Positions 22,915 through 64,000 of a DNA stretch of 64,000 nucleotides are shown one piece after another; within the stretch, counting starts at the first letter, position 1; every line of letters begins with the position of its first letter. The notes under the pieces are model-generated. The model had not been told where the DNA came from and did no database searches. It saw only the letters and a program-made list of their open reading frames with translations. The translations under genes were made by a program, and so were the position numbers. The DNA is from Euzebya pacifica (GTDB taxonomy: Bacteria > Actinomycetota > Nitriliruptoria > Euzebyales > Euzebyaceae), in assembly GCF_003344865.1 (NCBI RefSeq), contig NZ_CP031165.1, positions 1,927,910-1,991,909 of the forward strand, given 5' to 3'.

Positions 22915-22943
22915 GCCCGGACGACGGCTGTTCGGCCGGATCG

Positions 22944-22974
22944 AGAACGGCCCCGACATCGTCGGGGCCGTTCT
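22944..22974. terminator. Strong bidirectional hairpin
   Basis: Perfect 14-bp arms AGAACGGCCCCGAC and GTCGGGGCCGTTCT enclose the 3-nt loop ATC. It sits between the convergent lipoprotein and TSP-C/CWB2 genes. Confidence 0.8.
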
Positions 22975-49036: not shown

Positions 49037-50172
49037 AGATCGCCTTGGTGTGCCCTTACGACTGGAGCATGCCTGGGGGTGTGAAGGCCCACGTCGGCAA
49101 CCTGGCGGAGTTCCTGCTGGACCGCCACGACGTGCGCATCTACGCACCCGCCAGCAAGCGGCTCCGCGGCGAGGGCCTGGACAAGCTCGTCCAGGTCGTC
49201 GGTCGCCCGGTGCCCATCCGCTACAACGACTCCGTCGCACCCGTCGGGCTGAACCCCCGGATCATCTACCGGATGAAGCGCCAGCTGAACGACTGGGGCC
49301 CCCACGTCACCCACATCCACGAGCCGTTGGCGCCGTGGGTGTCGATGGCGGCGACCGTCGCCGGTCCGATGCCGAAGATCGGCACGTTCCACGCATGGTC
49401 GACCGGCGACCGGGTCTACCGGGCCACCGCCCCGTTCATCCGCAAGATCGTCGGTGACCTCAAGGTCCGGGTGGCCGTCTCCCCGTCGGCGCAGAGCTTC
49501 GCCTCCCAGGCGCTGGGGGTCCCCACCGGCCAGTTCAGGATCCTTCCCAACGGTGTGGACGACACCCGGTTCGCCGAAGCCGAGCCACTGCACGACCTCG
49601 TCGACGAGAGCCGACCGCTGCTGCTGTTCGTCGGTCGGCTGGAGAAGCGCAAGGGCCTGGAGACGCTCATCAAGGCGTTCCTGCGCCTGCGGGCACAGGG
49701 CCACCACCTGCGGCTGGTCGTGGTGGGGGAGGGGCCCGAACGCGAACGCTGCCAGTCCCTCGTCCCGCCGAGCCTGCGGACCGAGGTGCTGTTCGTCGGC
49801 GCGGTCAGTCACAACGACCTGCCGCGCTACCACGCCTCCGCCGACGTGTTCGTGTCACCCGCGATGGGCGGGGAGTCCTTCGGCATCGTCCTGCTGGAGG
49901 GCATGGCCGCCGGGCTGCCGGTCGTCGCCTCCAACATCCCCGGCTACCGCACCGTGATGACCGATGGGGTGCAGGGCCGAATGGTCCCACCGGGCAACGC
50001 CGTCGCGCTGGCCGACGCCCTCGAGGCGCTGCTCGCCAACGACAAGCTGCGCAAGGCCATGGCGGCCGAGGGGCTGCGGACCAGCGCGGAGTACGCGTGG
50101 CCGGTCGTGGGTGCCGAGGTGGAGGAGATGTATCGGGAGGTCCATCGCGCCCATGTCAGCGACCTCCAGTGA
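49033..50172 (+). CDS. pimA: GT4 phosphatidylinositol mannosyltransferase
   Basis: 379 residues from GTG 49033 inside the patA stop. The N-terminal Gly loop is WSMPGGVKAHVGNLAE, HIHEPLAPWVS contains the conserved catalytic His region, and the C-terminal GDP-mannose site is ESFGIVLLEGMAAGLPVV (E-x7-E). It adds the first mannose to phosphatidylinositol in PIM biosynthesis. Confidence 0.92.
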   Translation: MKIALVCPYDWSMPGGVKAHVGNLAEFLLDRHDVRIYAPASKRLRGEGLDKLVQVVGRPVPIRYNDSVAPVGLNPRIIYRMKRQLNDWGPHVTHIHEPLAPWVSMAATVAGPMPKIGTFHAWSTGDRVYRATAPFIRKIVGDLKVRVAVSPSAQSFASQALGVPTGQFRILPNGVDDTRFAEAEPLHDLVDESRPLLLFVGRLEKRKGLETLIKAFLRLRAQGHHLRLVVVGEGPERERCQSLVPPSLRTEVLFVGAVSHNDLPRYHASADVFVSPAMGGESFGIVLLEGMAAGLPVVASNIPGYRTVMTDGVQGRMVPPGNAVALADALEALLANDKLRKAMAAEGLRTSAEYAWPVVGAEVEEMYREVHRAHVSDLQ

Positions 50173-50192
50173 CGACATAGAATCGCGCATTC

Positions 50193-51296
50193 GTGACTAC
50201 CGCCCGTAACACCCTGCTCCTGTTCTGTGTGCTCGCCCTGCTGACCGCTGCGTGCGGCGGCGACGAGCCCGAACCCGTCGTGTCGGCCACCCCCACGGTG
50301 ACCGCGGTTCCCGTGCCGGCGTTCACGCCCACGCCGACCCCGACACCCACCCCCAGCGAGGACGGCCCGGCCTATCCGCTGACCGGTGAGGAGGTCACCG
50401 ACGAGACGCGGCTGGCGCTCCCGGCACTGGGGATCAAGGTCGACAACGCCCCCCAGGCCCGCCCCCAGCTCGGCCTGCAGGATGCCGACGTGGTGTTCGA
50501 GGAGCTCGTCGAGGGTGGCGTCACCCGGTTCCTGGCGATCTTCCACTCCACCGACCCCGGCGAGGTCGGCCCCGTCCGCTCGGGTCGTGACGTCGACGCA
50601 GACCTGTTCCCGCCCTTCGACGGGGTGCTGGCGATCTCCGGTGCGGCAGCCCCCACCTACAACGTGCTGTTCTCCGCCGGACTGACGGTGTTCGAGGAGG
50701 GCCAGGCCGGCGGAGCGATCCACCGTGTCGCCGACCGGTCGGCACCCCACAACCTCAACGCCACCGCCACCCAGCTGTGGGACGCCGGCGACGACCAGCC
50801 CGCCGCTGCCGAACCGTGGCCCTTCGACGCGACGATCCCCACCGGGGGTGCGCCGGTCGAGACGATCCTCGCGCCGTTCTCCGACGACTACCGCCACTCG
50901 TGGGCGTGGCGCGAGAGCAAGGGCGTGTTCGAGCGCGGCCAGAACGGCACCCGCCACCTGACCGCCGACGGCACCCAGATCTCGGCCGCCAACATCGTCT
51001 ACGCCGAGGTCGAGACCGGCTCGGGCGGCGGCGTGGACGTGTCCGGATCGGCCACGGTCTCCATCGAGCTCATCGGTGGCGGCGAGGCGACGTTCTACCG
51101 GGACGGCCAGCGGTTCGAGGGCACCTGGCGCAAGACCGCCCGTGACGCCCAGTTCGAGTGGCTCGACGCCCGCGGACAGCCGTTCCCCCTCGCACCGGGC
51201 GCCACCTGGGTCGAGCTGCAGCCCGTCGGCCTGGGCCAGCAGGTCGACGTCGCTGACGTGTCGGCCGATGCCCCGACCGAGGAACCCACGGAGTAG
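50193..51296 (+). CDS. DUF3048 lipoprotein
   Basis: 367 residues from GTG 50193, 9 nt after TAGAAT (50178-50183). The lipobox is LLTAACGG, followed by a Thr/Pro linker. The DUF3048 (YerB-like) domain shows [42 protein letters not shown] and [13 protein letters not shown]. The function of this family is not established; proteins with this domain are exported or lipid-anchored. Monocistronic, between pimA and pdxS. Confidence 0.88.
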
Positions 51297-51299
51297 GGC

Positions 51300-51351
51300 A
51301 GTGGAGCCCGAAGTGGCTCGAGAAAGTGGCCTCGATTTCGATGGGTACAGT
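51300..51351 (+). promoter_or_regulatory. PdxR-like direct repeats and -10 upstream of pdxS
   Basis: AGTGG occurs at 51300, 51312 and 51325 within GCAGTGGAGCCCGA, CGAAGTGGCTCGA and GAAAGTGGCCTCGA, and again at 51349 overlapping the -10. The -10 TACAGT (51346-51351) lies 6 nt before the pdxS ATG. The repeats resemble the corynebacterial PdxR operator AAAGTGGW(T)CTA, which also occurs as three direct repeats, as I recall. Confidence 0.62.
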
Positions 51352-51357
51352 GGCGCC

Positions 51358-52257
51358 ATGAGCGAGCCCACCACCGAGACGACCGGCACCCGTCGCGTGA
51401 AGCGCGGCCTGGCCGACATGCTGAAGGGCGGCGTCATCATGGACGTCGTCAACGCCGAGCAGGCGAAGATCGCCGAGGAGGCCGGCGCGGTTGCCGTCAT
51501 GGCCCTCGAGCGCGTGCCAGCCGACATCCGCCGCGACGGCGGCGTGGCCCGCATGTCCGACCCGGACATGATCGACGGCATCATCGACGCCGTGTCCATC
51601 CCCGTGATGGCCAAGGCGCGGATCGGCCACTTCGTCGAGGCGCAGATCCTGCAGTCCCTCGGCGTGGACTACATCGACGAGTCGGAGGTCCTGACCCCGG
51701 CCGACGAGGCCCACCACATCGACAAGCACGCGTTCACCGTGCCGTTCGTGTGCGGTGCCACCAACCTGGGCGAGGCCCTGCGGCGCATCGCCGAGGGGGC
51801 GGCCATGATCCGCTCCAAGGGCGAGGCCGGCACCGGCAACGTGGTCGAGGCGACCCGCCACATGCGGTCCATCGCCGGCGAGATCCGCAAGCTGTCCACG
51901 ATGGACGAGACCGAGCTGTACACGGCCGCCAAGAACCTCCAGGCGCCCGTCGAGCTGGTCCGCGAGGTCGCCGAGACCGGTTCGCTTCCCGTCGTGCTGT
52001 TCACCGCCGGTGGCCTGGCCACCCCGGCCGACGCGGCGATGATGATGCAGCTGGGTGCCGACGGCGTGTTCGTCGGCTCGGGCATCTTCAAGTCCGGCAA
52101 CCCCGAGCAGCGTGCCCGCGCCATCGTGCAGGCCACCACCTACTTCGAGGACGCCGACATGCTGGCCAAGGTCAGCCGCAACCTCGGTGAGGCCATGGTC
52201 GGGATCAACCTCGACGAGCTGTCGGAGGACCAGAAGCTGGCCAAGCGCGGCTGGTGA
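51358..52257 (+). CDS. pdxS: Pyridoxal 5'-phosphate synthase lyase subunit
   Basis: 299 residues. The (beta/alpha)8 PdxS/Snz fold is shown by [17 protein letters not shown], catalytic Lys in [10 protein letters not shown], the second Lys in [11 protein letters not shown], and [16 protein letters not shown]. It builds PLP from ribose-5-phosphate, glyceraldehyde-3-phosphate and ammonia from PdxT. The partner pdxT is 10 kb downstream, separated by an accessory region. The mRNA is probably leaderless. Confidence 0.97.
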
Positions 52258-52275
52258 CCCTTCAGGACTGAACAT

Positions 52276-52304
52276 CAACGGCCGCTCCGAAGGAGCGGCC
52301 GTTG
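52276..52304. terminator. Strong hairpin after pdxS
   Basis: Perfect 13-bp arms CAACGGCCGCTCC and GGAGCGGCCGTTG with loop GAA lie between the convergent pdxS and phospholipase D genes. Confidence 0.85.
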
Positions 52305-52342
52305 GTCTGTCTCCGGGGTGTGCCGGTACGCGTCGCGCTGGC

Positions 52343-53485
52343 CTACAACCAGTCCTCGAAGGGGTCGAGGACGGCTTCGGCCCACTTCTTCCAGATCGGA
52401 CGGTCGCGCCAGCGCTCGAGGTCGATGACCTCGGCCTTGGTGATGTCCTCCTCGTAGTGGGCGTCGAGGATGGCGACCAGGTCGGGGTCGAAGGCCACGA
52501 TCGACAGCTCCTCGTTGTGGCGCATGCTGCGCTCGTCGACGTTGGCCGACCCGAACATCGCGAGCTCGCCGTCGATGGTGAGGACCTTGGCGTGCAGCAT
52601 CGTCTGCTCGTAGTGGCGGATGGTGACCCCGCACTCCAGCATCCGCTCGTATTCGTCGGCGCTGGCCAGGTGGGTGACCCGGTTGTCCAGGTGGGTGCCC
52701 GGCAGCAGCAGCTCGACCTCCACGCCTCTGGCCGGGGCGGCGCACATCAGCTCCAGCATCCGCTCGCCGGGGACGAAGTAGGCCGTGGTGATCCGGATCC
52801 GCCGTTCGGCGCTGCGCAGCATGGCGTCCATGGCCAGGCCGACGTCGTGCCAGAACGGTCCGGAGGACCCCCGGAGCATCAGCAGATCGGTGTCGCCCTC
52901 CTTGGGGAGGTCGGGGAAGGTGTCCCCGTCGCAGACCGACGGGTGGCCGCACTCGACCCAGTGCTCGACGAACGCCGCACCCATCTGCCGCACGATCGGG
53001 CCGCGGAGCCGGAAGTGGGTGTCGCGCCACTCGTCGGGATTGCGGGCGTCGCCCTGCCACTCCTCGGCGATGCCGACGCCACCGGTCATCGCGACCCGCT
53101 CGTCGACGATCAGCAGCTTGCGGTGGGTGCGATGGTGCATGCGGCTGGGCCGGTCGTTGGCGGCCCGGAACAACTCGACCTCACAGCCGGCGTCCTTCAT
53201 CTCGTCGACCAGGTCGCTGTCCATGGCCATGCTGCCGACGGCGTCGAGAATGACGCGGACGCGCACGCCATCACGGGCGCGATCGGCCAGCGTGTGGGCC
53301 ATGCGCTGGGCGATGTCGCCGGTCCAGTACACGTAGGTGACCAGGTCGATCCGCCGCTCGGCCGACGCGATCGTCTCCATCATGGCCGGGAAGATCTCGT
53401 CGCCGTTGCGGAACACCTCCACAGCGTTGTCATGCGTGACCGATCCCCCGGTCACGCCCTCCAGTACAGCCCGGGCTCGTTCCAT
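52343..53485 (-). CDS. Phospholipase D-domain protein (cardiolipin synthase-like)
   Basis: 380 residues with two HKD motifs: HRKLLIVDE (first, in a THRKLLIVD context) and MLHAKVLTIDG (second), each followed by GSANVD- or GG-type residues. YVYWTGDIAQ and TAYFVPGERML match cardiolipin synthase relatives. No transmembrane helix, unlike ClsA, so it is a soluble ClsB/ClsC-like or other PLD enzyme. ATG 53485. It diverges from the RHS gene. Confidence 0.88.
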   Translation of the reverse strand: MERARAVLEGVTGGSVTHDNAVEVFRNGDEIFPAMMETIASAERRIDLVTYVYWTGDIAQRMAHTLADRARDGVRVRVILDAVGSMAMDSDLVDEMKDAGCEVELFRAANDRPSRMHHRTHRKLLIVDERVAMTGGVGIAEEWQGDARNPDEWRDTHFRLRGPIVRQMGAAFVEHWVECGHPSVCDGDTFPDLPKEGDTDLLMLRGSSGPFWHDVGLAMDAMLRSAERRIRITTAYFVPGERMLELMCAAPARGVEVELLLPGTHLDNRVTHLASADEYERMLECGVTIRHYEQTMLHAKVLTIDGELAMFGSANVDERSMRHNEELSIVAFDPDLVAILDAHYEEDITKAEVIDLERWRDRPIWKKWAEAVLDPFEDWL

Positions 53486-53594
53486 GTCACCCTGAGTGCC
53501 CCGTGGACGGTGCCGCCAAACGGATCCTCGAGCCGGCGCAGTGGCAAGGTCGTGTTGCGTTGAGTGGCGGTTGGGTGAACTGGCGGGTGTGAGG

Positions 53595-53624
53595 TTGACG
53601 GGGGCGGGTGGGTTGTCCTAGAAC
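53595..53624 (+). promoter_or_regulatory. Near-consensus promoter of the RHS gene
   Basis: TTGACG (53595-53600), an 18-bp spacer and TAGAAC (53619-53624) give one of the most consensus-like promoters in the window. The leader would be about 70 nt before ATG 53704. Confidence 0.55.
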
Positions 53625-53703
53625 CGTCGGTATCGGTGGCCTGTTTGTTGGTCATCGCCCGTGAGTTGCGCCGCCTGACCCCTGCGTCGCTGTCTTCGGG
53701 GGG

Positions 53704-56700
53704 ATGTCAGCGTCGGTGTGCCTGCGTGTGCGTGGGCTGGGGAAAGGGTGCGTGGTGGTCGCTCGGTTCGGTCGTGGTCGTGTCGTGGTGTGGGTGGGGG
53801 CGTTGCTGGCGGTGGTGTTGGCGGTGGGAGGGGTTCCGGTGTCGGCTCAGCCGGTGGCTGAGGTTGGGTCAGCGGGGTGGGTGCCGGGGGAGGTGGTGCG
53901 TGGGGGTGCGGGGGCGCCTGCGTCGTCGGTGGATTCCCCTGGCCGGTGGGGGCCGGTGGCGGAGGGGTTGGCTGAGCCGGTGGTTGAGGTGGTGGCTGAG
54001 CGGGGTGAGTTCTCCAAGGTGTGGGAGATGTCGGATGGGTCGCAGGCGGTGCAGGTCACCCAGGTCCCGTTGCATGTCCGTACGGGGGAGGGGTGGGTGG
54101 ATGTCGATGCGTCGGTGACGGCCCGGCCGGATGGGTCGTTTGTGGCTGCGGGGTTGCCGGTGGGGGTCGAGTTGCCGGCGGAGGCGAGGGGGCCGGTGCG
54201 TGTGGTTGATGGGGAGGTGTCGGTGGCGTTTGCGTTGACCGCCGCCGGTGGGCCCGGTCGGGCCGAACGGGCGGTGGCGGCCTCGCAGGGACGGGCGGAG
54301 GCTGATCGGGGCGGGGTGGCCTATGCGGGTGTGGCTGCGGGGGTGTCGTTGGTCTACCGGCCGTTCGTGGGTGGGGTGAAGGAGGCGATCGTGTTGGAGG
54401 GCCCGGACGCGCCGACGTCGTTTGTCTTCGACGTGGCCACGGTCGGGTTGGAGCTGGTTGCAGACGAGCGGGGGGTGCGGCTGGTCGATGCCGATGGGCA
54501 GGTTCGGTTCATTGTGGCGCCGCCGTTCATGGAGGACGCTGCGGGGGTCCGCTCTGATGGGGTGGAGCTTCGGCTGGACGGGCGGGGCCGGGTGGTGCAG
54601 ACCATCACTGACACCGATTGGTTGGCTGATCCTGGGCGGGTGTGGCCGGTGACGGTTGATCCGACGGTGTCCTCGACGGCGTGGACCACGGACTGTCAGC
54701 TGCACGAGGATGCGCCGTCGTTGACCGATTGTGGGTCGGCGACCGGGGTGATCGGTGATGACGGCACCGGTGAGCATCGGATGATCTACCACTTCGGTCT
54801 CCATGGAGTGTTCGATGAGCCGGTCCAGGTGATCCAGAACGCTGCGATCCGTCTGACCCGTACCACTGTCAGTCCGGGGTCGGCCACTGATGCGTTGGAG
54901 GCCTTTGCCTTGACCGCACCGTTCGATCCGGGCTGGGTGTCGTGGAACAACCGGGAGAACGGGCAGGCGTGGGGCAGCCCCGGCGGCGATTTTGGGCCGC
55001 GCGAGTACGGCACCGCAGTGTCCAACCCGGGGGAGGAGGTCGGGATCAGCGTGGACCGTCATGTCCAGCAGTGGCTGGACGGCCCGGCGACGGACAACTA
55101 CGGGATCCTGCTGAAGACCGACGACAGCGACTACTACCGGGTCCACACCGAGGAGGCCACCGACCCCGCGGTGTGGCCGTCGTTGTGGATCCGCTACAAC
55201 CCGCTGTTCGGCATCAAGGACCAGTACGGCCTGGAGTCCTTCACCCTGTCAGAGCGTCGTGATGCCCATGTCAACCTGGCATCGGGCAACCTGACGGTCC
55301 GTGAGACCGATGTGGACCTGGTGGGGGTTGCCGGCCATGATGCACGGGTGGTGCGCCAGTACGACTCGCGGTTCGACACCCGCACCCATGCTGCCGGTGG
55401 GACGTTCGGGCCGTGGTGGAACGCCGGGTGGAACTGGCAGGTCCTGCCCTCTGACGGGGTGCGGCTGGAGGCCGGGGAGTCTGGTGACCGGTGGCTTGTC
55501 GCCGGCGCGCAGTGGCACTTCCCCTACAACTCGGTGTCGGGCGGCTGGGACAGCCCTGAGGGATCAGACCTTGCGCTGCACCAGCTGGGATCCGGCGAGT
55601 TCTTGCTGACGTTCGTCCGCTCCGGCGAGGTGTGGACGTTCTCTGCCGGTGGGATCCTTGACACCATGGTCGATCGGCACGGCAACGCCATCACGATGGG
55701 GTATGCCACCTCGGGGTATGACCGGCCGACCACGATGACTGACAGCCGTGGGCAGACCACCAGCTTCGACTACTCCTCCAACACCTGGAATGAGGACCTG
55801 ACCGGCTACACCGACCCGGCCGGCCGGTCCTACGGGTTCACCTACACCGGCGATGCCGAGATCGAGACGTTCACCGACCCTGACGGAAACGTCACGACCT
55901 ACACCTACGACAACGACCACAACCTGACCGGCATCGAGGATGCCGAGGGCAACCACACCCTGTTCGACTACGACACCGACGGGCGGGTGGTGGAGCTTGT
56001 CCGGGTGGATGACCCGGTGGGCATGACCGGTCCGACGTGGCTGTTTGACTACTCCACCGCCTGGGAGACGGTGGTGACCGACCCGAACGGGCACGACACC
56101 ACCTACGCCTTTGATCGGCAGGGTCGGATCACCGAGGTGGAAGACGCGCTGGGACGGGACCGCCAGACCTCCTGGACTGCGTCGGCGTCGGTGGCCTCCT
56201 TCTCCGACCTTGATGGCAACGCCACGATCAACACCTACTCAACCGACGCCCGGTACAACCTGGAATCGGTCGAGTTGCCCACCGGCGCGCAGACGGCGTT
56301 TGCCTACACCGACACCGACAACCCCTATGCCCCGTCGGCGGTCACCAGCCCGCAGGGCAACACCACCAGCATCGACTACGACAGCCTGGGCCGGCCGGTC
56401 ACGATCACCGACCCGACCACCGCCTGCTCAGGTGCCGCCTGCACCCAGACGATCAGCTACAACGCCGACGGGACCATCGACAGCGTGACCGATCCCAACG
56501 GCAACGTCACCGACTACACCTACAACAGCGACGGCGAGCTGATCCGTATCGACCATCCGGCACCGCGAGCGGATGTGTCGTTGACCTATGACAGCATCGG
56601 CCGGCCGGTCACGGTCACCGACGGCAACGGCATCACCACCACCTACGGCTATGACAGACATGATCGGGTGGTGAGCGTGGACCATCCCACCGACCCGGAT

Positions 56701-58071
56701 CTGACCTACACCTACGATGATGTGGGCAACCGGACGGGCCGGACCGATGCCACCGGCACCACCACCACGACCTATGACGACATCTACCGGATCATCGGGG
56801 AGACCTCCCCAGGGTCGGTGACAACCAGCTACGCCTATGACGATGCCGGCAACCTGACCTCGCTCACGGACCTGGCCGGCACCGTGTCCTACACCTACAA
56901 CGACGCCAACGAGGTGGTCAGCGTGACCGAGCCGGGCAGCGTGACGACCACGATCAGCTACACCACCAACGGCCAGCCTGACCAGACCAGCCTGCCCAAC
57001 GGCTGGACGATCGACCGGGACTACGACACCTCCGGCAGGCTGGTGGGCGTCACCGCTGGCGATGGGACGGCTGTTGAGGTCGATCGGTCCTATGACTATC
57101 ACGACGGGACCGGTGACACGGCGTTGGTGCATGCAGAGACCGATGGGGTGGCGGGGCAGACCTTCTACTACACCTATGACCAGCTGGAACGGCTCGATGG
57201 GATGTACACCAGCTCGGCGACGGTGCACCACTACAGCTATGACCCGGCGGGGAATCGGCTGACCCACAACGATGGCGGGTCGACCACCATCTTCTCCTAC
57301 AACGCCGCCAACCAGCTCACCAACGCCGGTGGGGTCACGGTGTCCCATGACGGGCAGGGCAACCTGACCGCCACCTCCGCCGGGGACGCCTACACCTATG
57401 ACGAGGCCAACCGGCCTGTCAGCATCACCGCTGGTGGGACCGGTCCGCTGGCGGCGACCTACTGGGGCGACACCGCCGTCGGCCGGGCCACGCTCGGGTC
57501 GACCAGCTACGTCACCAGCCTGTTGGGCGTGACGGCCCAGACGACGGGGAGTACGACGGTTGGCTACACGCGACTCCCTGATGGCCAGGTGCTGTCCCGT
57601 CGTGAGGGGACTGACATCCACTACCTGCTGCCCGATCGGCTGGGGTCCACCCAGGCGCTGGTCGACGATGGCGGCACGGTGACCACCAGGTATGCCTACA
57701 GCCCCTACGGGCAGACGTCGGTGACGGCGGTGACGGCAGGCCACGTCGACCAGCCGTTCAGGTTCGCCGGGCAGCATCAGGACCCCACCGGCCTGTACAA
57801 GATGGGCCTGCGCTACTACAACCCCGACCAGGCCCGCTGGACCCAACCCGACCCCGCCCTCTCCCTGACCGCACTGCCGTTCGCCAACACCTACACCTAC
57901 GTCGGCAACAACCCCATCAACGGCATCGACCCGACGGGAGCAGCTTGTAGCGGACTCGAGTGGGCCGGCATCGTCTTCGGGGTCGCTGGCATTCTTGCCA
58001 CAGGAGGTTATGGGGCGACGCTACTTGCTGGTGCATACGCGGGCTATGGCACGGGGTACTGCACGGCATGA
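53704..58071 (+). CDS. Secreted RHS/YD-repeat protein with short hydrophobic C-terminal tip
   Basis: 1455 residues. A signal sequence (VVVWVGALLAVVLAVGGVPVSAQP) is followed by an N-terminal domain (50-315). A DNRLRE-type domain (316-500: MIYHFGLHGVFDEP, SVDRHVQQWLDG) comes next, then a DUF6531-like segment (VNLASGNLTVRETDVDLVG). YD repeats (660-1330: YDSLGRPVTITD, GNVTDYTYNSDGEL) lead to the conserved RHS core (1352-1414: RFAGQHQDPTGLYKMGLRYY, NNPINGIDPTG). Only about 41 residues follow, rich in Gly/Ala and hydrophobic. RHS shells usually deliver a C-terminal toxin. The first kilobase is unusually rich in G and in GGG/GTG codons, hinting at transfer. Confidence 0.88.
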   Translation: MSASVCLRVRGLGKGCVVVARFGRGRVVVWVGALLAVVLAVGGVPVSAQPVAEVGSAGWVPGEVVRGGAGAPASSVDSPGRWGPVAEGLAEPVVEVVAERGEFSKVWEMSDGSQAVQVTQVPLHVRTGEGWVDVDASVTARPDGSFVAAGLPVGVELPAEARGPVRVVDGEVSVAFALTAAGGPGRAERAVAASQGRAEADRGGVAYAGVAAGVSLVYRPFVGGVKEAIVLEGPDAPTSFVFDVATVGLELVADERGVRLVDADGQVRFIVAPPFMEDAAGVRSDGVELRLDGRGRVVQTITDTDWLADPGRVWPVTVDPTVSSTAWTTDCQLHEDAPSLTDCGSATGVIGDDGTGEHRMIYHFGLHGVFDEPVQVIQNAAIRLTRTTVSPGSATDALEAFALTAPFDPGWVSWNNRENGQAWGSPGGDFGPREYGTAVSNPGEEVGISVDRHVQQWLDGPATDNYGILLKTDDSDYYRVHTEEATDPAVWPSLWIRYNPLFGIKDQYGLESFTLSERRDAHVNLASGNLTVRETDVDLVGVAGHDARVVRQYDSRFDTRTHAAGGTFGPWWNAGWNWQVLPSDGVRLEAGESGDRWLVAGAQWHFPYNSVSGGWDSPEGSDLALHQLGSGEFLLTFVRSGEVWTFSAGGILDTMVDRHGNAITMGYATSGYDRPTTMTDSRGQTTSFDYSSNTWNEDLTGYTDPAGRSYGFTYTGDAEIETFTDPDGNVTTYTYDNDHNLTGIEDAEGNHTLFDYDTDGRVVELVRVDDPVGMTGPTWLFDYSTAWETVVTDPNGHDTTYAFDRQGRITEVEDALGRDRQTSWTASASVASFSDLDGNATINTYSTDARYNLESVELPTGAQTAFAYTDTDNPYAPSAVTSPQGNTTSIDYDSLGRPVTITDPTTACSGAACTQTISYNADGTIDSVTDPNGNVTDYTYNSDGELIRIDHPAPRADVSLTYDSIGRPVTVTDGNGITTTYGYDRHDRVVSVDHPTDPDLTYTYDDVGNRTGRTDATGTTTTTYDDIYRIIGETSPGSVTTSYAYDDAGNLTSLTDLAGTVSYTYNDANEVVSVTEPGSVTTTISYTTNGQPDQTSLPNGWTIDRDYDTSGRLVGVTAGDGTAVEVDRSYDYHDGTGDTALVHAETDGVAGQTFYYTYDQLERLDGMYTSSATVHHYSYDPAGNRLTHNDGGSTTIFSYNAANQLTNAGGVTVSHDGQGNLTATSAGDAYTYDEANRPVSITAGGTGPLAATYWGDTAVGRATLGSTSYVTSLLGVTAQTTGSTTVGYTRLPDGQVLSRREGTDIHYLLPDRLGSTQALVDDGGTVTTRYAYSPYGQTSVTAVTAGHVDQPFRFAGQHQDPTGLYKMGLRYYNPDQARWTQPDPALSLTALPFANTYTYVGNNPINGIDPTGAACSGLEWAGIVFGVAGILATGGYGATLLAGAYAGYGTGYCTA

Positions 58072-58307
58072 GTGGCCTACAAGTAGCTCGGGTCCTTGCG
58101 GTAATTGCCATCGCTGCATTCGCGTTCTTGCTCGGCCGACTCGCTTCCCCGGGATTTCCTCGACCGCTCCTCGTTGCAGGAGTCCTCCTAGTTCTTGGTG
58201 CCTTCTTGCTGCCCATCAACGTTTCGTACGTTCCCGAACGGTTCCTTCGGTTAGCGCTGTTGGTGGCGGGCGTGGTTGCATTGGTAGGTGCGGCCGCAAC
58301 CTATTGA
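58068..58307 (+). CDS. Small membrane protein coupled to the RHS gene (possible immunity protein)
   Basis: 79 residues from ATG 58068, overlapping the RHS stop by 4 nt (ATGA). Three hydrophobic helices are visible (VLAVIAIAAFAFLLG, LLVAGVLLVLGAFLL, LALLVAGVVALVGAA). No family recognised. In RHS loci the gene right after the variable tip usually encodes the immunity protein; a membrane immunity protein would fit a membrane-active tip. This is inference. It is too small to exclude a chance frame, but the overlap and composition argue for a real gene. Confidence 0.62.
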   Translation: MSGLQVARVLAVIAIAAFAFLLGRLASPGFPRPLLVAGVLLVLGAFLLPINVSYVPERFLRLALLVAGVVALVGAAATY

Positions 58308-58334
58308 TTGGTACTGACGTGGCGGTGCGAGTCA

Positions 58335-58448
58335 TGCCCAAGAAGATTGATCCGACGGTCAAGGAGCGCTATGTGCGCTAGGTCCTTGACCAGCTGCAGG
58401 AGTACCCCTCGCTGCCCGCTGCGGCCGTAGCGGTCGCCCGGCGCGAGA
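58335..58448 (+). pseudogene. IS3-family orfA fragment with in-frame stop
   Basis: Reading from ATG 58335 gives MPKKIDPTVKERYVR, then a TAG stop, then VLDQLQEYPSLPAAAVAVARRE, which matches the start of IS3-type OrfA proteins. The similarity stops at about 58448, where an IS30 remnant on the other strand begins. Non-functional. Confidence 0.7.
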
Positions 58449-59256
58449 TTCCCAGTGCCCGGGCACCGCGCGGTCCTTCACCTCTGCCGGCCGTGCGGAG
58501 ATCATCACCTGGTCTGTCACGAACTTCTTGCCCCGGTTGGCCGGGCGGGCTCGCGGCACGCGCAGCGCACGACCAGTCCGAAGACATGCGACGAGTTCGC
58601 GCTTCAGCGCGCCGCGGCCCTGGATGTCCAGCGCCTGGTAGATCGGCCTCGTGTGAGGTCCGCATCGACTCATCATCGGGGAAGTCGAGCTTCAACCGGT
58701 TGGCGATCTGCTCCGGACTCCACGCGGTGGCCCACCGCCGGTCCTTGCGACGGCCGTGCCGGCGACCCTTGAACGCCACCGATGGCCCCACGATCGTGGT
58801 GCCGTCCGCCGCGTTGATGTTGCCGGCCAGCCGGTCCTGCACGTACTCGCGCAGCCGGTCGTTGGCGACCAGCTTCGCGGGTTTGGCTCGTCGTGCCATC
58901 AGCTCGGCCTTCCACTGCGCCACCGAGGCCCGGTACTCAAGCTTGCCGCTACGGGTTGCCGCGTTGCGACGCACCTCCCGAGAGATCGTCGACGGTGATC
59001 GGTCCAGCTCTCGGGCGATGTGGCGGATCGACTTGCCGTCGCGAAGCAGCAGCGCGATGTCCTCCCGTTTAACGAAGGACTGGAACCGGTCAGTGCCGGA
59101 GGTCAGCTGGATCGATGGCATGCCGCCACGATCGCGGAACCACCGCGATCCGACGGGACCCGACACACCCACCGCGACCGCGGCCTCCTCGCTGGTCAGT
59201 TCCTCGGCGATCTTGCCCCAAGAACGCCCGCTCCACGTCCCGACGAATCGGCGGAC
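58449..59256 (-). pseudogene. IS30-family transposase remnant (frameshifted, 3'-truncated)
   Basis: The N-terminal part reads AAVAVGVSGPVGSRWFRDRGGMPS, IRHIARELDRSPSTISREVRRN and TAWSPEQIANRLKLDFPDD, diagnostic of IS30. After MRTSHEA an extra base near 58644 shifts the frame; the other frame continues IYQALDIQGRGALKRELVACL through VTDQVMISARPAEVKDRAVPGHWE. It then ends abruptly at about 58449, lacking the catalytic C-terminal half. Confidence 0.8.
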
Positions 59257-59261
59257 GCCCC

Positions 59262-59680
59262 GGTCAGAATGACAACCAGCAGTCGGGCCATCGTCGCGAC
59301 GGCGTGCTCGGCCTGATTCGCCGTCATGAACGCGAAGGCTTTCGGGGCGTCGCGTCGGTCTCCGCAGCGAACCAGGCCGCGGCCTTTCACAGGGTCTCGC
59401 GTTCCTCGCGAAGGATCTTGTTCTCCCGACGGAGTCTGGCGAGCTCCTCGCGCTCGGCGCGGCCCAGATGAGCCGGGTCGTCCTCTGCGACATCGGCGGC
59501 GATCCAGTTGCGGATCGTCTGCGCGGTCTGCCCGTAGTCAGGCGACAGCTCCTCCGGCGAGCGACCTGCCTTGACCAGTGCGATCAGCTGCTCACGCAGC
59601 TCGAGCCGATACGGGGGCTTGTTCTTCGGCATCGTGGCTCCAGTCTCCCAAGCGGGAGCCTGTCCACCAAACAGGGGTCA
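59262..59680 (-). mobile_element. IS3-family element remnant (orfA and start of orfB)
   Basis: Left portion of an IS3 element in reverse: a terminal repeat-like end (59661-59680, inward TGACCCCTGTTTGGTGGACA), orfA (59387-59632), then an orfB beginning AFAFMTANQAEHAVATMARLL that is cut off near 59262 by the IS30 remnant. The element has lost its other end. Confidence 0.7.
59387..59632 (-). CDS. IS3-family transposase OrfA (element truncated)
   Basis: 81 residues from ATG 59632: MPKNKPPYRLELREQL, an HTH (AQTIRNWIAADV), and a leucine-zipper-like ARLRRENKILREERETL typical of OrfA. The stop is followed by KAAAWFAAETDAT in the same frame, as in elements using frameshifting to OrfB. OrfB is broken, so transposition is not expected. 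Confidence 0.72.
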   Translation of the reverse strand: MPKNKPPYRLELREQLIALVKAGRSPEELSPDYGQTAQTIRNWIAADVAEDDPAHLGRAEREELARLRRENKILREERETL

Positions 59681-59687
59681 CTCCAAC

Positions 59688-59748
59688 GACAGGATAGCCG
59701 GCCGGTCACGGCAACCGGCGGCAGCGGCATCACCACCACCTACGGGTA
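59688..59748 (+). pseudogene. RHS gene fragment
   Basis: The sequence translates to RPVTATGGSGITTTYG and closely matches the RHS gene at about 56588-56648 (RPVTVTDGNGITTTYGY). An exact match covers GGCATCACCACCACCTACGG. It sits directly outside the IS3 end, so it is a scrap of another RHS copy or cassette that the IS pieces interrupted. Confidence 0.72.
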
Positions 59749-59776
59749 GGTGCCGTGCCCCCTCGTGGGCGCGGTC

Positions 59777-60274
59777 TCAGGCTGCGGCGCCCACGAGTTG
59801 GGCACCGAGCAGCAGGCAGGCCAGCCCCAGGAGCAGGATCCACGGGGCGATGGAGCGCACCAGCGTCACCGAGTCGGCCGAACCGACGATCGTCTTGCCC
59901 TTCTTCACCGCCATGTCGATGACGGCATCGACGTCGTCGGCAGCGGTCAGCTGTACGTTGGGTCCCTCGATGACCTTCAGGACCGGGTTGATCCGCCACC
60001 ACGTCGAGTTCGGCATGATCACCGCGTCGATGGCCTTCCAGCTGATCTCGCGTGCGGGGCCGATGCCGGGCCGCTCGTGCATGCCCTTGGCGGTGACCTC
60101 GAGCCGCCACAGGAACTCACGGGCGGTCTGCAGGCCGATGATGGCCGGATAGGCCACGACCCCGAAGTCGCTCGTGTCGCCCGACAGGGCCGCCCACGCG
60201 ATGATCACCACCAGGGTGGACGCGGCGACGACGCGCATGGCGAGCGGACGGGTGAGGACGACGACGTTGTTCAT
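59777..60274 (-). CDS. PH-domain-like membrane protein
   Basis: 165 residues from ATG 60274. Two N-terminal hydrophobic segments (MRVVAASTLVVIIAWAALS; FGVVAYPAIIG) precede a small domain (LEVTAKGMHERPGIGPAREISWKAIDAVIMPNSTWWRINPVL) that resembles bacterial PH domains, and a final membrane segment (IAPWILLLGLACLLLGAQLVGAAA). Function unknown. Divergent from the PTS operon. Confidence 0.65.
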   Translation of the reverse strand: MNNVVVLTRPLAMRVVAASTLVVIIAWAALSGDTSDFGVVAYPAIIGLQTAREFLWRLEVTAKGMHERPGIGPAREISWKAIDAVIMPNSTWWRINPVLKVIEGPNVQLTAADDVDAVIDMAVKKGKTIVGSADSVTLVRSIAPWILLLGLACLLLGAQLVGAAA

Positions 60275-60359
60275 GGCCGCACCGATCCTGCCCGGTCGAG
60301 GACGCTCCGGCCAGCACGCGCCCCCGGCCGACCGGCTTCTGTCCCTTGGGCTGGCGTGC

Positions 60360-60369
60360 AACCGCGGTT
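60360..60369. promoter_or_regulatory. Palindrome AACCGCGGTT upstream of the PTS operon
   Basis: A perfect 10-bp palindrome 70 nt before the EIIC start in the divergent gap. It could be an operator; a single short palindrome is weak evidence in GC-rich DNA. Confidence 0.25.
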
Positions 60370-60438
60370 CCAACGACACTGGGGGAGAGCCGTTCGATTC
60401 GAGCGAGGCGGACGGGCCGGCCGAGGAGGGCTCTCCGG

Positions 60439-61569
60439 ATGAACGATGCAGGCGCTGCCCCAGAGGGGACCTGGGTTCGCCTGCGCACCTGGTTGCAGCG
60501 CGTCGGCGGGAACCTGGCCGGCATGGTCATGCCCAACATCGGCGCGTTCATCGCCTGGGGCCTGCTCAGCGCCCTGTTCCTGCCCGCCGGGTGGATCCCC
60601 AACGAGGGACTGGCGTCGTTGAGCGAACCGATGGTCACGACGCTGCTGCCCGTCCTCATCGGGCTGACCGGCGGACGTGTGGTGCACGACCAGCGGGGAG
60701 GGGTCATCGGCGCGATCGCGACGATGGGCATCGTCGTCGGCTCTGACGTTCCCCAGCTGCTCGGCGCGATGGTCGCCGGTCCCCTGGCTGCCCTCGCCCT
60801 GCGACAGGTCGACCGGAGCCTGCGACCCCGCGTGCGCGCGGGGTTCGAGATGCTCGTCGACAACTTCTCCCTCGGCCTGCTCGGCCTGGCCATGGCCGTG
60901 CTCGGCTACGTGGCGATCGGCCCGGTCGTGTCGGTGGTCACCGTGACCCTCGGCGACGGGGTCGACTGGATGGTGGCCAATCACCTGCTGCCTGTGGTGT
61001 CGGTCATCGTCGAGCCGGCCAAGGTCCTGTTCCTCAACAACGCCGTCAACCACGGGGTCCTCGCCCCCCTGGGGGCGGTCGAGGCCGAACGGATCGGCCA
61101 GTCGCTCGTGTTCATGATCGAGACCAACCCGGGCCCAGGGCTCGGCATCCTGCTGGCCTTCTGGCTGGCGGGGCCGCGAGACGTCCGGCCGACGGTGCCG
61201 GGTGCCGTGATCATCCACTTCCTTGGCGGCATCCACGAGATCTCCTTTCCCTACGTGCTGATGAAGCCACGCCTGCTGATCGCCGCCATCGCCGGCGGGG
61301 CGACCGGCGTGGCCACCTTCATGCTGACCGGCGCAGGCCTGGTCGCGACACCGTCTCCCGGGTCGATCTTCGCGTGGCTGGCCGTGATGCCGCGGGGTGG
61401 CTACGTCGGCCCCCTGCTCGGCATCCTGCTGTCCACCCTGGTCTCGGCCGGCGTCGGTACGCTCCTGCTCAAGGCCGAGCGCCGCAAGGACACCGCTGGG
61501 GACCTGGCCGACGCGCGGACGAGGTCATCGGCCAACAAGTGGTCGGCATCGCAGGCACGGGAGGCGTGA
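60439..61569 (+). CDS. mtlA: PTS mannitol-type transporter EIIC
   Basis: 376 residues from ATG 60439 with GAGGAGGG upstream. MtlA-type motifs: VGGNLAGMVMPNIGAFIAWGL, FLNNAVNHGVLAPLG, MIETNPGPGLGILLAFW and FLGGIHEISFPYVLMKPRL. Membrane pore of a phosphotransferase system that phosphorylates the sugar alcohol on entry. The EIIB and EIIA parts, fused in E. coli MtlA, are separate genes here. Sugar assignment rests on family resemblance; no mtlD is nearby. Confidence 0.88.
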   Translation: MNDAGAAPEGTWVRLRTWLQRVGGNLAGMVMPNIGAFIAWGLLSALFLPAGWIPNEGLASLSEPMVTTLLPVLIGLTGGRVVHDQRGGVIGAIATMGIVVGSDVPQLLGAMVAGPLAALALRQVDRSLRPRVRAGFEMLVDNFSLGLLGLAMAVLGYVAIGPVVSVVTVTLGDGVDWMVANHLLPVVSVIVEPAKVLFLNNAVNHGVLAPLGAVEAERIGQSLVFMIETNPGPGLGILLAFWLAGPRDVRPTVPGAVIIHFLGGIHEISFPYVLMKPRLLIAAIAGGATGVATFMLTGAGLVATPSPGSIFAWLAVMPRGGYVGPLLGILLSTLVSAGVGTLLLKAERRKDTAGDLADARTRSSANKWSASQAREA

Positions 61570-61571
61570 AC

Positions 61572-61883
61572 ATGCCAACGATCGACGGGGGGGCAGTACG
61601 GCGGGTGCTGGTGGCCTGCGAGGCCGGGATGGGCTCCAGCGTCCTGCTGACCTCGCAGCTGTCGACGCGCCTTGCGCCCTACGGCGTGCCGGTGACCCAT
61701 GCGGCCGTCAACCGGCTGGAGGCAGGCGAGGGCGACGTGGTGCTGTGTCACGCGGCGCTGGCCGGCCGGGCCCGGCAGGCCGCCCCCGGTGTGGTCGTCC
61801 TGCCGTTCCAGCTGTTCATGGGCGACCCGGCGTTCGACCGGCTCGAGGCCGCCATCCGCGACGGGGACCCGCTGGGTGGATGA
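61572..61883 (+). CDS. PTS mannitol-type EIIB
   Basis: 103 residues from ATG 61572 (GGGAGG 7 nt upstream; GTG 61566 is the alternative). The phospho-accepting Cys is in VLVACEAGMGSSVL, the EIIB-mannitol signature. VLPFQLFMGDPAFDRLEAAI closes the small Rossmann-like domain. It passes phosphate from EIIA to the sugar at EIIC. Overlaps the next gene by 8 nt. Confidence 0.88.
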   Translation: MPTIDGGAVRRVLVACEAGMGSSVLLTSQLSTRLAPYGVPVTHAAVNRLEAGEGDVVLCHAALAGRARQAAPGVVVLPFQLFMGDPAFDRLEAAIRDGDPLGG

Positions 61884-62622
61884 CCACGAGGTCCTGCCCC
61901 TCGGCGGCATTCGCATGGGCGCGGTCGTGCAGTCGAGGGAGGAGGCCATCGACCTCGTCGGTGGGCTGCTGGTCGAGGCCGGCGCGGTGGCCGCCGCCTA
62001 CGGCGAGGCGATGCACGAACGCGAGGCCATCGTGTCCTCCGTCGTGGGTCCTGGGGTGGCCATGCCGCACGGCACCGACGCCTCGCGGTCACTGGTGCAC
62101 CGCGCCATGGTGGCCGTCGCGCAACTCGCCGAACCAATCGACTGGGGTGGCCAGCCCGTGCGGGTCGTCATCGGCCTGGCCTCGGCCTCGGCGGACCACC
62201 TGCCGCTGATGGCTCGGCTGGCCGGGGTCCTGCGGGACCGGGCGCGGCTGTCGCGGCTGTCGACCACCGACGACGCGGAGGAAGTGCGGACCCTGCTGCT
62301 CGGGTCCGACCCCGACCCGGCGCCCGACCCCGACCCGGCGCCCGAGGCCGTCGACGAGCCAGAGGAGGTGGTCGTACCGGTCGAGGTGGGGGCCGACGTC
62401 GGGTTGCATGCCCGCCCCGCAGCGGCGGTCGTGCGGATCGCGGCCGCCCAGGACGTGGCGGTCACCGTGGGACGTCCCGGCGGCACGCCGGTCGACGCGA
62501 CATCGATGCTGTCGTTGCTGGCGCTCGGTGTGGATCACGGCGAGGTGGTGGAGGTTCGCGCCAGCGGCCCGGGTGCCCGAGCTGCGGTGGAGGCGGTCGT
62601 GGCGGTCATCGCGGCACCCTGA
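61876..62622 (+). CDS. PTS EIIA-HPr fusion protein
   Basis: 248 residues from GTG 61876. Residues 1-145 are an EIIA domain of the mannitol/fructose class with active His in VAMPHGTDASR. A linker of DPDPAP repeats leads to an HPr domain (165-248) with active His in VGLHARPAAAVV and the regulatory-Ser position in ATSMLSLLALGVDHG. It resembles diphosphoryl transfer proteins but lacks enzyme I. It lets EI feed phosphate straight into this PTS. Confidence 0.88.
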   Translation: MDDHEVLPLGGIRMGAVVQSREEAIDLVGGLLVEAGAVAAAYGEAMHEREAIVSSVVGPGVAMPHGTDASRSLVHRAMVAVAQLAEPIDWGGQPVRVVIGLASASADHLPLMARLAGVLRDRARLSRLSTTDDAEEVRTLLLGSDPDPAPDPDPAPEAVDEPEEVVVPVEVGADVGLHARPAAAVVRIAAAQDVAVTVGRPGGTPVDATSMLSLLALGVDHGEVVEVRASGPGARAAVEAVVAVIAAP

Positions 62623-62673
62623 GCCCCGAGTGGCTGCCGAGAGGCCTGCGGACGGCCGCTACCCTGCGGCCCG

Positions 62674-63261
62674 ATGACGACCACAGTTGGAGTGCTGGCC
62701 CTGCAGGGCGACGTCGCGGAGCACCTGCGGGTGCTCGACGAGCTCGGGGTGCGCACCATGCCGGTGAAGCACGCCCACCAGCTCGAGGCGATCGACGGAC
62801 TGGTCATCCCCGGCGGAGAGTCCACGACCATCGGCAAGCTGCTGGGCCTGTTCGACCTGCTCGAGCCGCTTCGCGCCCGCATCGCCGACGGGCTGGGGGT
62901 CTTCGGGACCTGTGCCGGGGCGATCCTGCTGGCCAGCGAGGCGGTGCACCACGACGGTCGTCCGGCCGACCAGCCGCTGCTGGAAGCCATGGACACCAGC
63001 GTCCGTCGCAACGCCTTCGGACGGCAGCTCGACAGCTTCGAGACCGACCTCGACGTCGCCGGGATCACCGGCGGACCGATGAAGGCGGTCTTCATCCGTG
63101 CCCCCGCGATCGAGCGGGCCGGAGTAGCGGTGGACGTACTTGCCACGGTGGGCGATACCATCGTCGTCTGCCGTCAGGGTCGACTGCTGGCCAGCTCGTT
63201 TCATCCCGAGCTGACCGACGACTCCCGGTTGCACGAACTCTTCGTCGATTTGATCAGGTGA
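62674..63261 (+). CDS. pdxT: Pyridoxal 5'-phosphate synthase glutaminase subunit
   Basis: 195 residues. VGVLALQGDVAEHLRVL, IPGGESTTIGKLL (oxyanion loop), the nucleophile Cys in FGTCAGAILLA, and the His/Glu pair in SSFHPELTDD are all intact. It makes ammonia from glutamine for PdxS. ATG 62674 follows TACCCT (62660-62665) by 8 nt, so it has its own leaderless promoter rather than depending on the PTS genes. Confidence 0.96.
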   Translation: MTTTVGVLALQGDVAEHLRVLDELGVRTMPVKHAHQLEAIDGLVIPGGESTTIGKLLGLFDLLEPLRARIADGLGVFGTCAGAILLASEAVHHDGRPADQPLLEAMDTSVRRNAFGRQLDSFETDLDVAGITGGPMKAVFIRAPAIERAGVAVDVLATVGDTIVVCRQGRLLASSFHPELTDDSRLHELFVDLIR

Positions 63262-63268
63262 GAGCGAG

Positions 63269-64000
63269 ATGTCGGGTCACAGCAAATGGGCAACGATCAA
63301 GCGCAAGAAGGGCGCGAACGACGCGGCCCGCGGGCGCCTGTTCGGAAAGCTGATCAAGGCCATCGAGGCTGCGGCCCGTGACGGGGGCGCAGACCCCGAC
63401 ATGAACCCGACCCTGGCCACGATGGTGCAGAAGGCCAAGGACGCCTCGGTCCCCAAGGACAACATCGAGCGTGCCCTGGCCCGTGCGGCCGGTCGTGACG
63501 GCGGTGGGGCGGACTGGAAGACCGTCTACTACGAGGGCTATGCGCCCGGTGGTGTGGCCGTCTACGTGCAGTGCCTGACCGACAACACCAACCGTGCTGC
63601 GGCTGACGTGCGCACCGCGTTCAACAAGAACGGCGGCTCGCTGGCCGAGCCCGGCGCGGTCAACTACCTGTTCACCCGCACCGGCGTCGTGACCGTCCCG
63701 ACCGACGGCACCGACGAGGACGAGGTCATGATGGCGGCGCTGGAAGCCGGCGGCGAGGACGTCAGCAACGACGGCGACGTCTACACCATCACCTGCCAGC
63801 CGACGGACGTGAACGACGTCCGCAAGGCCCTGACCGAGGCCGGCATCCCCGTGTCGTCCTCCGACACCACGATGCTGCCCAGCGTCAACGTCCCGATCAC
63901 CGACGAGGAGAGCGCGAAGAAGGTCATGCGCGTCATCGATGCCCTCGAGGACTCCGACGACGTGCAGGATGTGTTCGCGAACTACGACATCTCCGACGAG
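63269..64000 (+). CDS. YebC/PmpR family regulatory protein (partial, runs off the window)
   Basis: 244 residues visible, near full length. It begins MSGHSKWATIKRKKGANDAARG and contains NPTLATMVQKAKDASVPKDNIERALARA and YYEGYAPGGVAVYVQCLTDN, diagnostic of the YebC family, members of which bind DNA or help translate difficult sequences. It starts 7 nt after pdxT, so the two share a transcript, as in Mycobacterium. Confidence 0.95.
   Translation, partial: MSGHSKWATIKRKKGANDAARGRLFGKLIKAIEAAARDGGADPDMNPTLATMVQKAKDASVPKDNIERALARAAGRDGGGADWKTVYYEGYAPGGVAVYVQCLTDNTNRAAADVRTAFNKNGGSLAEPGAVNYLFTRTGVVTVPTDGTDEDEVMMAALEAGGEDVSNDGDVYTITCQPTDVNDVRKALTEAGIPVSSSDTTMLPSVNVPITDEESAKKVMRVIDALEDSDDVQDVFANYDISDE

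What the first reader, a model, noticed from the sequence alone, without database searches (positions are those of the whole stretch)
53704..58307. RHS shell with a 41-residue hydrophobic tip and a coupled membrane protein
The tip after the RHS core (DPTG) is far shorter than most RHS toxins and is Gly/Ala-rich and hydrophobic, like a membrane-active peptide. A 79-residue, three-helix membrane protein starts inside the RHS stop codon (ATGA), the position where immunity genes sit. This could be an undescribed membrane-acting RHS toxin-immunity pair. The alternative is a toxin cut short by the IS events just downstream.
Basis: partly seen in the sequence, partly recalled or inferred. Interest (0 to 1): 0.7.

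Follow-up and report, generated by a model that had tools for sequence, protein, structure and literature searches.

The report
RHS membrane toxin with small immunity protein
A bacterium carries what looks like a secreted protein shell that ends in a tiny, greasy, two-cysteine peptide, probably a membrane-attacking toxin, with a small membrane protein beside it that probably protects the producer; the same arrangement, with ever-changing sequences, recurs across Streptomyces and other actinobacteria.

Summary
RHS ORF 53704-58071 (1455 aa) ends 43 residues after the DPTG of its core. A 79-aa, three-helix membrane protein (58068-58307) starts in the ATGA overlapping the RHS stop. Tip and small ORF form one compositional cassette: GC3 falls from about 0.9 to 0.57 at the DPTG boundary. 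They lie in an accessory islet (53485-59776) missing from the syntenic genome of the nearest relative.
Neither tip nor small protein has a detectable homologue, so the pair cannot be confirmed by conservation of its own sequence. The architecture recurs, however. In 88 actinobacterial and 64 Streptomycetaceae RHS ends, a small protein with at least two TM segments follows about 60% of hydrophobic tips, against 1-3% of background positions. In tip families these ORFs are under purifying selection and diverge along with the tip. Hydrophobic Streptomycetaceae tips hold an even number of cysteines (35/35 non-redundant); the window tip has two.
Best reading: a Sec-exported RHS shell carrying a disulfide-stapled membrane-active tip, with its immunity protein. 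It works like Tse5/Tsi5 and CDI ionophores but is smaller, with no homology of tip or immunity protein. New variant of a known kind. Truncation by IS elements is unlikely but not excluded.

The parts
53485..59776 (.). Accessory islet holding the RHS gene, the small ORF and IS debris; absent from the nearest relative
   Evidence: G002 aligns at 50014-53484 (90%) and 59777-64000 (86%) with only a 68-bp gap on its side; in G001 the two flanking genes are also adjacent
53704..58071 (+). RHS/YD-repeat protein, 1455 aa
   Evidence: PF05593 E=6.7e-50, TIGR01643, TIGR03696; matches solved Rhs cages, bacterial teneurin-like proteins and Tse5
53704..53847 (+). Probable N-terminal Sec signal peptide (aa 1-48): Arg-rich start, hydrophobic stretch, VSA-Q
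   Evidence: read directly from the sequence; no signal-peptide program was available
57697..57939 (+). RHS-associated core / C-terminal plug (aa 1332-1412) with Asp1383 (57850-57852) and Asp1409 of DPTG (57928-57930), the positions of the two autoprotease aspartates
   Evidence: motif compared with PMC9637101 (D1141/D1164 in Tse5) and PMC8636562
57940..58068 (+). 43-aa hydrophobic, Gly/Ala-rich tip with two cysteines (tip residues 3 and 41): proposed membrane-active toxin
   Evidence: GC3 falls from 0.90-0.95 to 0.50-0.65 at its start
58068..58307 (+). 79-aa three-TM protein, ATGA overlap with the RHS stop: proposed immunity protein
   Evidence: no family in Pfam or NCBIfam
58334..59650 (.). 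IS debris: start of an IS3-like orfA (58334-58380, + strand), IS30-like HTH ORF and IS3 orfA-like ORF on the - strand
   Evidence: HTH_38 E=1.6e-15; HTH_Tnp_1 below its cut-off; the + strand start is read by eye
59688..59748 (+). 62-bp remnant of a second RHS copy, 87% identical to RHS 56590-56651
   Evidence: E=5.6e-16

Best explanation
This is a polymorphic-toxin locus. The RHS protein is exported by Sec (inferred) and folds into a YD-repeat cage (by homology). The core protease with its two aspartates cleaves after DPTG and frees the 43-aa tip (inferred from Tse5 and Rhs1). The tip is a hydrophobic, Gly/Ala-rich peptide, probably stapled by a Cys3-Cys41 disulfide once outside the cell, that inserts into the membrane of a competing cell, oligomerises and dissipates its membrane potential (inferred). 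The 79-aa three-TM protein, translationally coupled through the ATGA overlap, sits in the producer's membrane and blocks insertion or pore assembly by this particular tip (inferred). Tip and immunity gene move as one cassette between RHS shells (supported by the composition break).
For: (1) Exact ATGA coupling to one of only two ORFs of 40-170 aa with two or more TM segments in 64 kb. (2) Tip and small ORF share a foreign composition that begins at the core/tip boundary: GC3 0.57, against 0.75-0.93 for any 122-codon stretch of the RHS shell; PMC8636562 states that Rhs CTs differ in GC content and codon bias from shells. (3) Recurrence: mixed Actinomycetota, small ORF with two or more TM segments after 18/31 hydrophobic tips, 13/57 other tips, 18/1349 background windows; Streptomycetaceae with a tip-free query, 29/43 tips with a TM segment, 5/21 without, 30/1054 background; combined non-redundant 36/59 against 16/58, p=0.0004. 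(4) Within tip families the small ORFs are under purifying selection (dN/dS 0.13-0.53) and their identity tracks tip identity. (5) Streptomycetaceae hydrophobic tips have 0, 2 or 4 Cys and never an odd number in 35/35 non-redundant tips (33 of them 2 or 4), and 7/7 at 30% clustering; the core just upstream (0-1) and the small ORFs (0-4, mixed parity) do not. The window tip has two. (6) Arthrobacter plasmid pYA7-1b carries three orphan RHS cassettes in a row, each followed by one or two small TM ORFs mostly absent from the listed gene table.
Against: No homologue of this tip or this small protein anywhere searched, so neither selection on the small ORF nor co-occurrence can be tested for this pair. 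Codon usage of the small ORF is poor against host and shell, though the tip's is too. The Gly-zipper pattern in the tip is no more than its composition gives (P=0.36). A 43-aa tip is short for a pore-former. About 40% of hydrophobic tips in the surveys had no small TM ORF in the scanned interval. No functional data.
Confidence: 0.72

Rival explanations
1. The tip is what is left of a longer RHS toxin (the hydrophobic pre-toxin segment) after IS-mediated deletion; the 79-aa ORF is incidental.
For: IS debris starts about 30 bp downstream of the small ORF and an RHS remnant lies at the right end of the islet. Hydrophobic stretches also open longer RHS tips, for example L042 and L003. The tip is shorter than any other surveyed tip with a partner.
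Against: Tips that look truncated, L104 and L177, lack a small TM partner. Here a three-TM ORF overlaps the stop exactly; the RHS frame beyond the stop is full of stops and shows no toxin remnant. Both tip cysteines are present, one next to the C-terminus. The IS debris lies beyond the small ORF, not between tip and ORF.
Confidence: 0.13
2. Tip and 79-aa ORF were (or are, by frameshifting) one longer membrane toxin of about 120 aa; the ATGA marks an indel, and the immunity gene is lost or elsewhere.
For: Both stretches are hydrophobic and share the same low GC3; a one-base shift would join them.
Against: In the surveys tip and small TM ORF are separate genes, at overlaps of a few nt or gaps up to about 120 nt. 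No slippery site is evident. ATGA is a usual coupling arrangement.
Confidence: 0.07
3. The hydrophobic C-terminus anchors the RHS shell in the producer's own envelope (adhesin-like use), and the small protein has another role.
For: A Sec signal plus a hydrophobic C-terminus would also fit a membrane-anchored surface protein (read from the sequence).
Against: In solved Rhs cages the C-terminus lies inside the shell (PMC10684867). Tip polymorphism with a co-diverging partner gene and orphan cassette arrays is the signature of toxin-immunity systems, not of anchors.
Confidence: 0.06

Closest known systems
Tse5/Tsi5 of Pseudomonas aeruginosa (PMC9637101, PMC10684867)
   Same: RHS cage, C-terminal toxin that enters membranes and depolarises cells, adjacent small integral-membrane immunity protein (two predicted TM regions), two-aspartate autoprotease at the boundary
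   Different: Tse5-CT has 149 residues and several TM helices, and Tse5 is delivered by T6SS with a PAAR-like N-terminus. Here the tip is 43 aa with two cysteines and the N-terminus looks like a Sec signal. The shell is homologous; no relation of tip or immunity protein was found.
CDI ionophore CdiA-CT/CdiI pairs (PMC11630599)
   Same: Membrane-dissipating, highly polymorphic tips with very hydrophobic 72-100-residue immunity proteins encoded immediately downstream, in some instances unannotated
   Different: CdiA rather than RHS cage; separate entry domain plus five-helix ionophore domain; Gram-negative delivery
LXG toxins EsxX and TelE with C-terminal glycine zippers (PMC12744356, PMC10434224)
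   Same: Gram-positive exported membrane-acting C-terminus; EsxX is membrane-depolarising and has immunity proteins
   Different: T7SS/LXG delivery, no RHS cage; the zipper pattern in this tip is not above chance
Tox-WTIP predicted pore-forming domain of polymorphic toxins (PMC3482391)
   Same: RHS-linked domain with membrane-spanning helices
   Different: Defined by RxxR and Wx[ST]IP motifs, neither present here; recorded from proteobacteria
Class II bacteriocins (small hydrophobic peptides, some disulfide-bonded, with small dedicated immunity proteins; from general knowledge)
   Same: Size of the tip (about 40-50 aa), paired cysteines, dedicated small immunity protein
   Different: Bacteriocins are made with leader peptides and exported by dedicated transporters; here the peptide is the tail of a 150-kDa RHS cage

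Membership tests
RHS polymorphic toxin | YD/RHS repeats and RHS-associated core domain | tested here: met
   PF05593 E=6.7e-50, TIGR03696 E=3.6e-22
RHS polymorphic toxin | DPxGL-(17/18)-DPxGL autoprotease motif at the end of the shell | tested here: inconclusive
   Both aspartates are present (Asp1383, Asp1409), but the motifs read DPAL and DPTGA with 22 residues between them; cleavage was not tested (PMC9637101)
RHS polymorphic toxin | C-terminal tip of different composition from the shell, followed by an immunity gene | tested here: met
   GC3 0.57 against 0.75-0.93; ATGA-coupled ORF; the immunity function itself is inferred
Tse5/Tsi5-type membrane-acting RHS pair | Hydrophobic tip with predicted TM segment and small multi-TM immunity protein next door | tested here: met
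Tse5/Tsi5-type membrane-acting RHS pair | Sequence homology of tip or immunity protein to Tse5-CT/Tsi5 | tested here: not met
   The best PDB stretch against Tse5 covers shell residues 732-1078; no family found for tip or small protein
Tse5/Tsi5-type membrane-acting RHS pair | Depolarises target membranes; immunity rescues | not testable with these tools
   needs expression experiments
Tox-WTIP domain | RxxR in helix 1 and Wx[ST]IP in helix 2 | tested here: not met
   The tip has no Arg and no Wx[ST]IP (sequence)
Glycine-zipper membrane toxins | GxxxGxxxG motif beyond composition | tested here: inconclusive
   One GAYAGYGTG present, but 36% of shuffles also have such a motif
Actinobacterial short-tip RHS pairs (class defined here) | Hydrophobic tip of about 40-130 aa with an even number of Cys, followed by a small TM ORF | tested here: met
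   43 aa, mean hydropathy 0.95, two Cys, three-TM ORF at -4; no sequence homology to other members

The most novel reading that the evidence does not exclude
Actinobacterial RHS shells are carriers for a large, previously unrecognised arsenal of disulfide-stapled, class-II-bacteriocin-like membrane peptides, each paired with a tiny and often unannotated two- or three-TM immunity protein. The window pair, at 43 aa, is the smallest example seen.
Probability: 0.45. Interest if true: 0.75.

Novelty: new variant of a known kind. Interest (0 to 1): 0.6.

Why it matters
Few Rhs tips are known to act on membranes; Tse5 is the experimentally studied one found here. If the survey reading is right, membrane-acting tips are commonplace in Actinomycetota RHS proteins, including those on Streptomyces and Arthrobacter plasmids, and their immunity genes are easily missed because they are only 55-100 codons long. 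The even-cysteine signature gives a simple search rule and a testable mechanism (oxidative stapling outside the cell), and suggests that a cage protein can deliver bacteriocin-sized peptides.

Tried and rejected
Wrong frame for the small ORF (58070): discarded and repeated; the apparent hit in G047 lay antisense in an integrase-like gene. Sequence homology of the window tip or small protein with 121 surveyed tips and 64 small ORFs: best shuffle z about 3-4.6, not convincing after that many comparisons, and the alignments are composition-driven. Glycine zipper as evidence: rejected, P=0.36 on shuffles. Codon usage as proof that the small ORF is coding: inconclusive, because the cassette is compositionally foreign. 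Tip length alone as a predictor of a small TM partner: not significant; hydrophobicity or a TM segment in the tip is. The search for related loci with the RHS C-terminus gave only RHS cores from other phyla. Seven literature searches found no description of hydrophobic two-cysteine RHS tips in actinobacteria; the library holds open-licence papers only.

Full report
OBSERVATION. The RHS reading frame runs from 53704 to 58071 (1455 aa). Pfam and NCBIfam place RHS repeats and the RHS-associated core (aa 1332-1412) in it, and by sequence it matches solved Rhs cages, bacterial teneurin-like proteins and the shell of Tse5. After the DPTG that closes the core only 43 residues remain. The stop (58069-58071) overlaps the ATG of a 79-aa ORF (58068-58307). 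That ORF has three strong hydrophobic segments and three helices in a single-sequence AlphaFold2 model (mean pLDDT 73). Only two of 290 ORFs of 40-170 aa in the window have two or more such segments, so a three-TM ORF sitting exactly on the RHS stop is unlikely to be chance.

SURROUNDINGS. The nearest relative held (G002, 90% DNA identity on the left flank) has the two flanks joined with a 68-bp gap, so 53485-59776 is an accessory islet. Beyond the small ORF the islet holds IS debris and, at its right end, a 62-bp remnant of a second RHS copy, 87% identical to this one. The composition changes at the core/tip boundary: GC3 is 0.90-0.95 up to DPTG, then 0.50-0.65 in the tip. Tip plus small ORF together have GC3 0.57, against 0.75-0.93 for every 122-codon stretch of the shell. 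Tip and small ORF therefore look like one imported cassette. PMC8636562 describes such a composition difference between Rhs C-terminal toxin domains and shells.

RELATIVES. Neither the tip nor the small protein has a recognisable homologue: not in Pfam or NCBIfam, not in 199 relatives or the 66 genomes of the class, not in plasmids. The arrangement, however, recurs. I collected RHS C-termini from other Actinomycetota genomes and asked whether an ORF of 40-170 aa with at least two TM segments starts between -60 and +150 of the RHS stop. In 88 mixed Actinomycetota ends this was so for 18 of 31 hydrophobic tips, 13 of 57 others and 18 of 1349 background windows (the window's own end is one of the 31). 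In 64 Streptomycetaceae ends, found with a query that contained no tip, it was so for 29 of 43 tips with a TM segment, 5 of 21 without, and 30 of 1054 background windows. Pooled and made non-redundant: 36 of 59 against 16 of 58, p=0.0004.

SELECTION AND CASSETTES. Where several genomes share a tip family, the small ORF has dN/dS 0.13-0.53 and its identity falls along with that of the tip, so these are real, co-evolving genes. The plasmid pYA7-1b of Arthrobacter sp. YA7-1 carries three orphan RHS cassettes in a row, each followed by one or two small TM ORFs, mostly missing from the listed gene table. Streptomyces plasmids show the same, with larger gaps in one case. The PLSDB gene table is incomplete by its own account, so absence from it is weak evidence of non-annotation.

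CYSTEINES. Of 35 non-redundant hydrophobic Streptomycetaceae tips, 28 have two cysteines, 5 have four, 2 have none and none has an odd number. At 30% clustering it is still 7 of 7 even; in the 11 tips listed at 35% clustering the Cys spacings range from 4 to 47. The 80 core residues just upstream hold 0 or 1, and the small TM ORFs show mixed parity. Mixed Actinomycetota are less strict. This is the signature expected of disulfide bonds formed after export. The window tip has two cysteines, at tip residues 3 and 41, and so fits. The parity was noticed after the fact, not predicted; it should be re-tested on a fresh set.

MECHANISM. Shown here: the anatomy, the composition break, the islet, the recurrence, the selection on partner genes in relatives, and the cysteine parity. 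Inferred: Sec export (Arg-rich start, hydrophobic stretch and VSA-Q, read by eye), cage formation, autoproteolysis by Asp1383/Asp1409 (the motif deviates: DPAL and DPTGA, 22 residues apart), membrane insertion and depolarisation by the tip, and protection by the small protein. The models are Tse5/Tsi5, where an RHS tip forms pores and a membrane protein with two predicted TM regions protects (PMC9637101, PMC10684867), and CDI ionophores, whose immunity proteins are 72-100 residues, very hydrophobic and in some instances unannotated (PMC11630599).

RIVALS. Truncation by IS elements is the main one. Against it: clearly shortened tips in the survey (L104, L177) lack a TM partner, the tip keeps both cysteines, the frame beyond the stop shows no toxin remnant, and the IS debris lies beyond the small ORF. 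A split longer toxin (tip plus 79 aa as one protein) cannot be excluded from one genome but goes against the pattern in relatives. An anchor role does not explain polymorphic tips with co-diverging partners.

VERDICT. The pair is not isolated in kind: it is one of many. And it is isolated in sequence, so it cannot be confirmed by conservation. It is a new variant of a known kind, and the class around it, with its even-cysteine rule, is of more interest than the single locus.

Noticed in passing
L170, L174, L184, L188, L197, L202, L203, L212, L216, L221, L224, L226, L033, L035; L239:6648-7313: A second recurrent RHS tip family of about 95-135 aa, Gly-rich with a GxGSPGxS-like motif and often four Cys (ending CSxxxYTF in many Streptomyces members); some members are followed by a ~70-aa two-TM ORF (L188, L212, L033, L035, L239).
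   Followed up: partly
L239 (NZ_CP110116.1 55793-67978): Arthrobacter plasmid with an array of three orphan RHS tip cassettes between IS3 elements; most of their small TM partner ORFs are not in the listed gene table.
   Followed up: yes
L029 (tip 57 aa) and L030 (tip 71 aa): Short, very cysteine-rich RHS tips followed by larger, apparently soluble ORFs (227-238 aa and 207 aa): perhaps a different peptide-toxin type.
   Followed up: no
window 59688-59748: 62-bp remnant of a second RHS gene (87% identical to 56590-56651) at the right edge of the islet, suggesting an earlier tandem RHS arrangement broken by IS elements.
   Followed up: partly
window 22552-22959 (-): The only other ORF of 40-170 aa with two or more predicted TM segments in the window (135 aa, three segments); not examined.
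   Followed up: no
L104 (G369:C1:5529433-5531800): A Streptomycetaceae RHS end whose tip (LFSFDEFLDTGSSFSEH) appears frameshifted, with a glycine-rich hydrophobic continuation in another frame: a probable decayed cassette.
   Followed up: no
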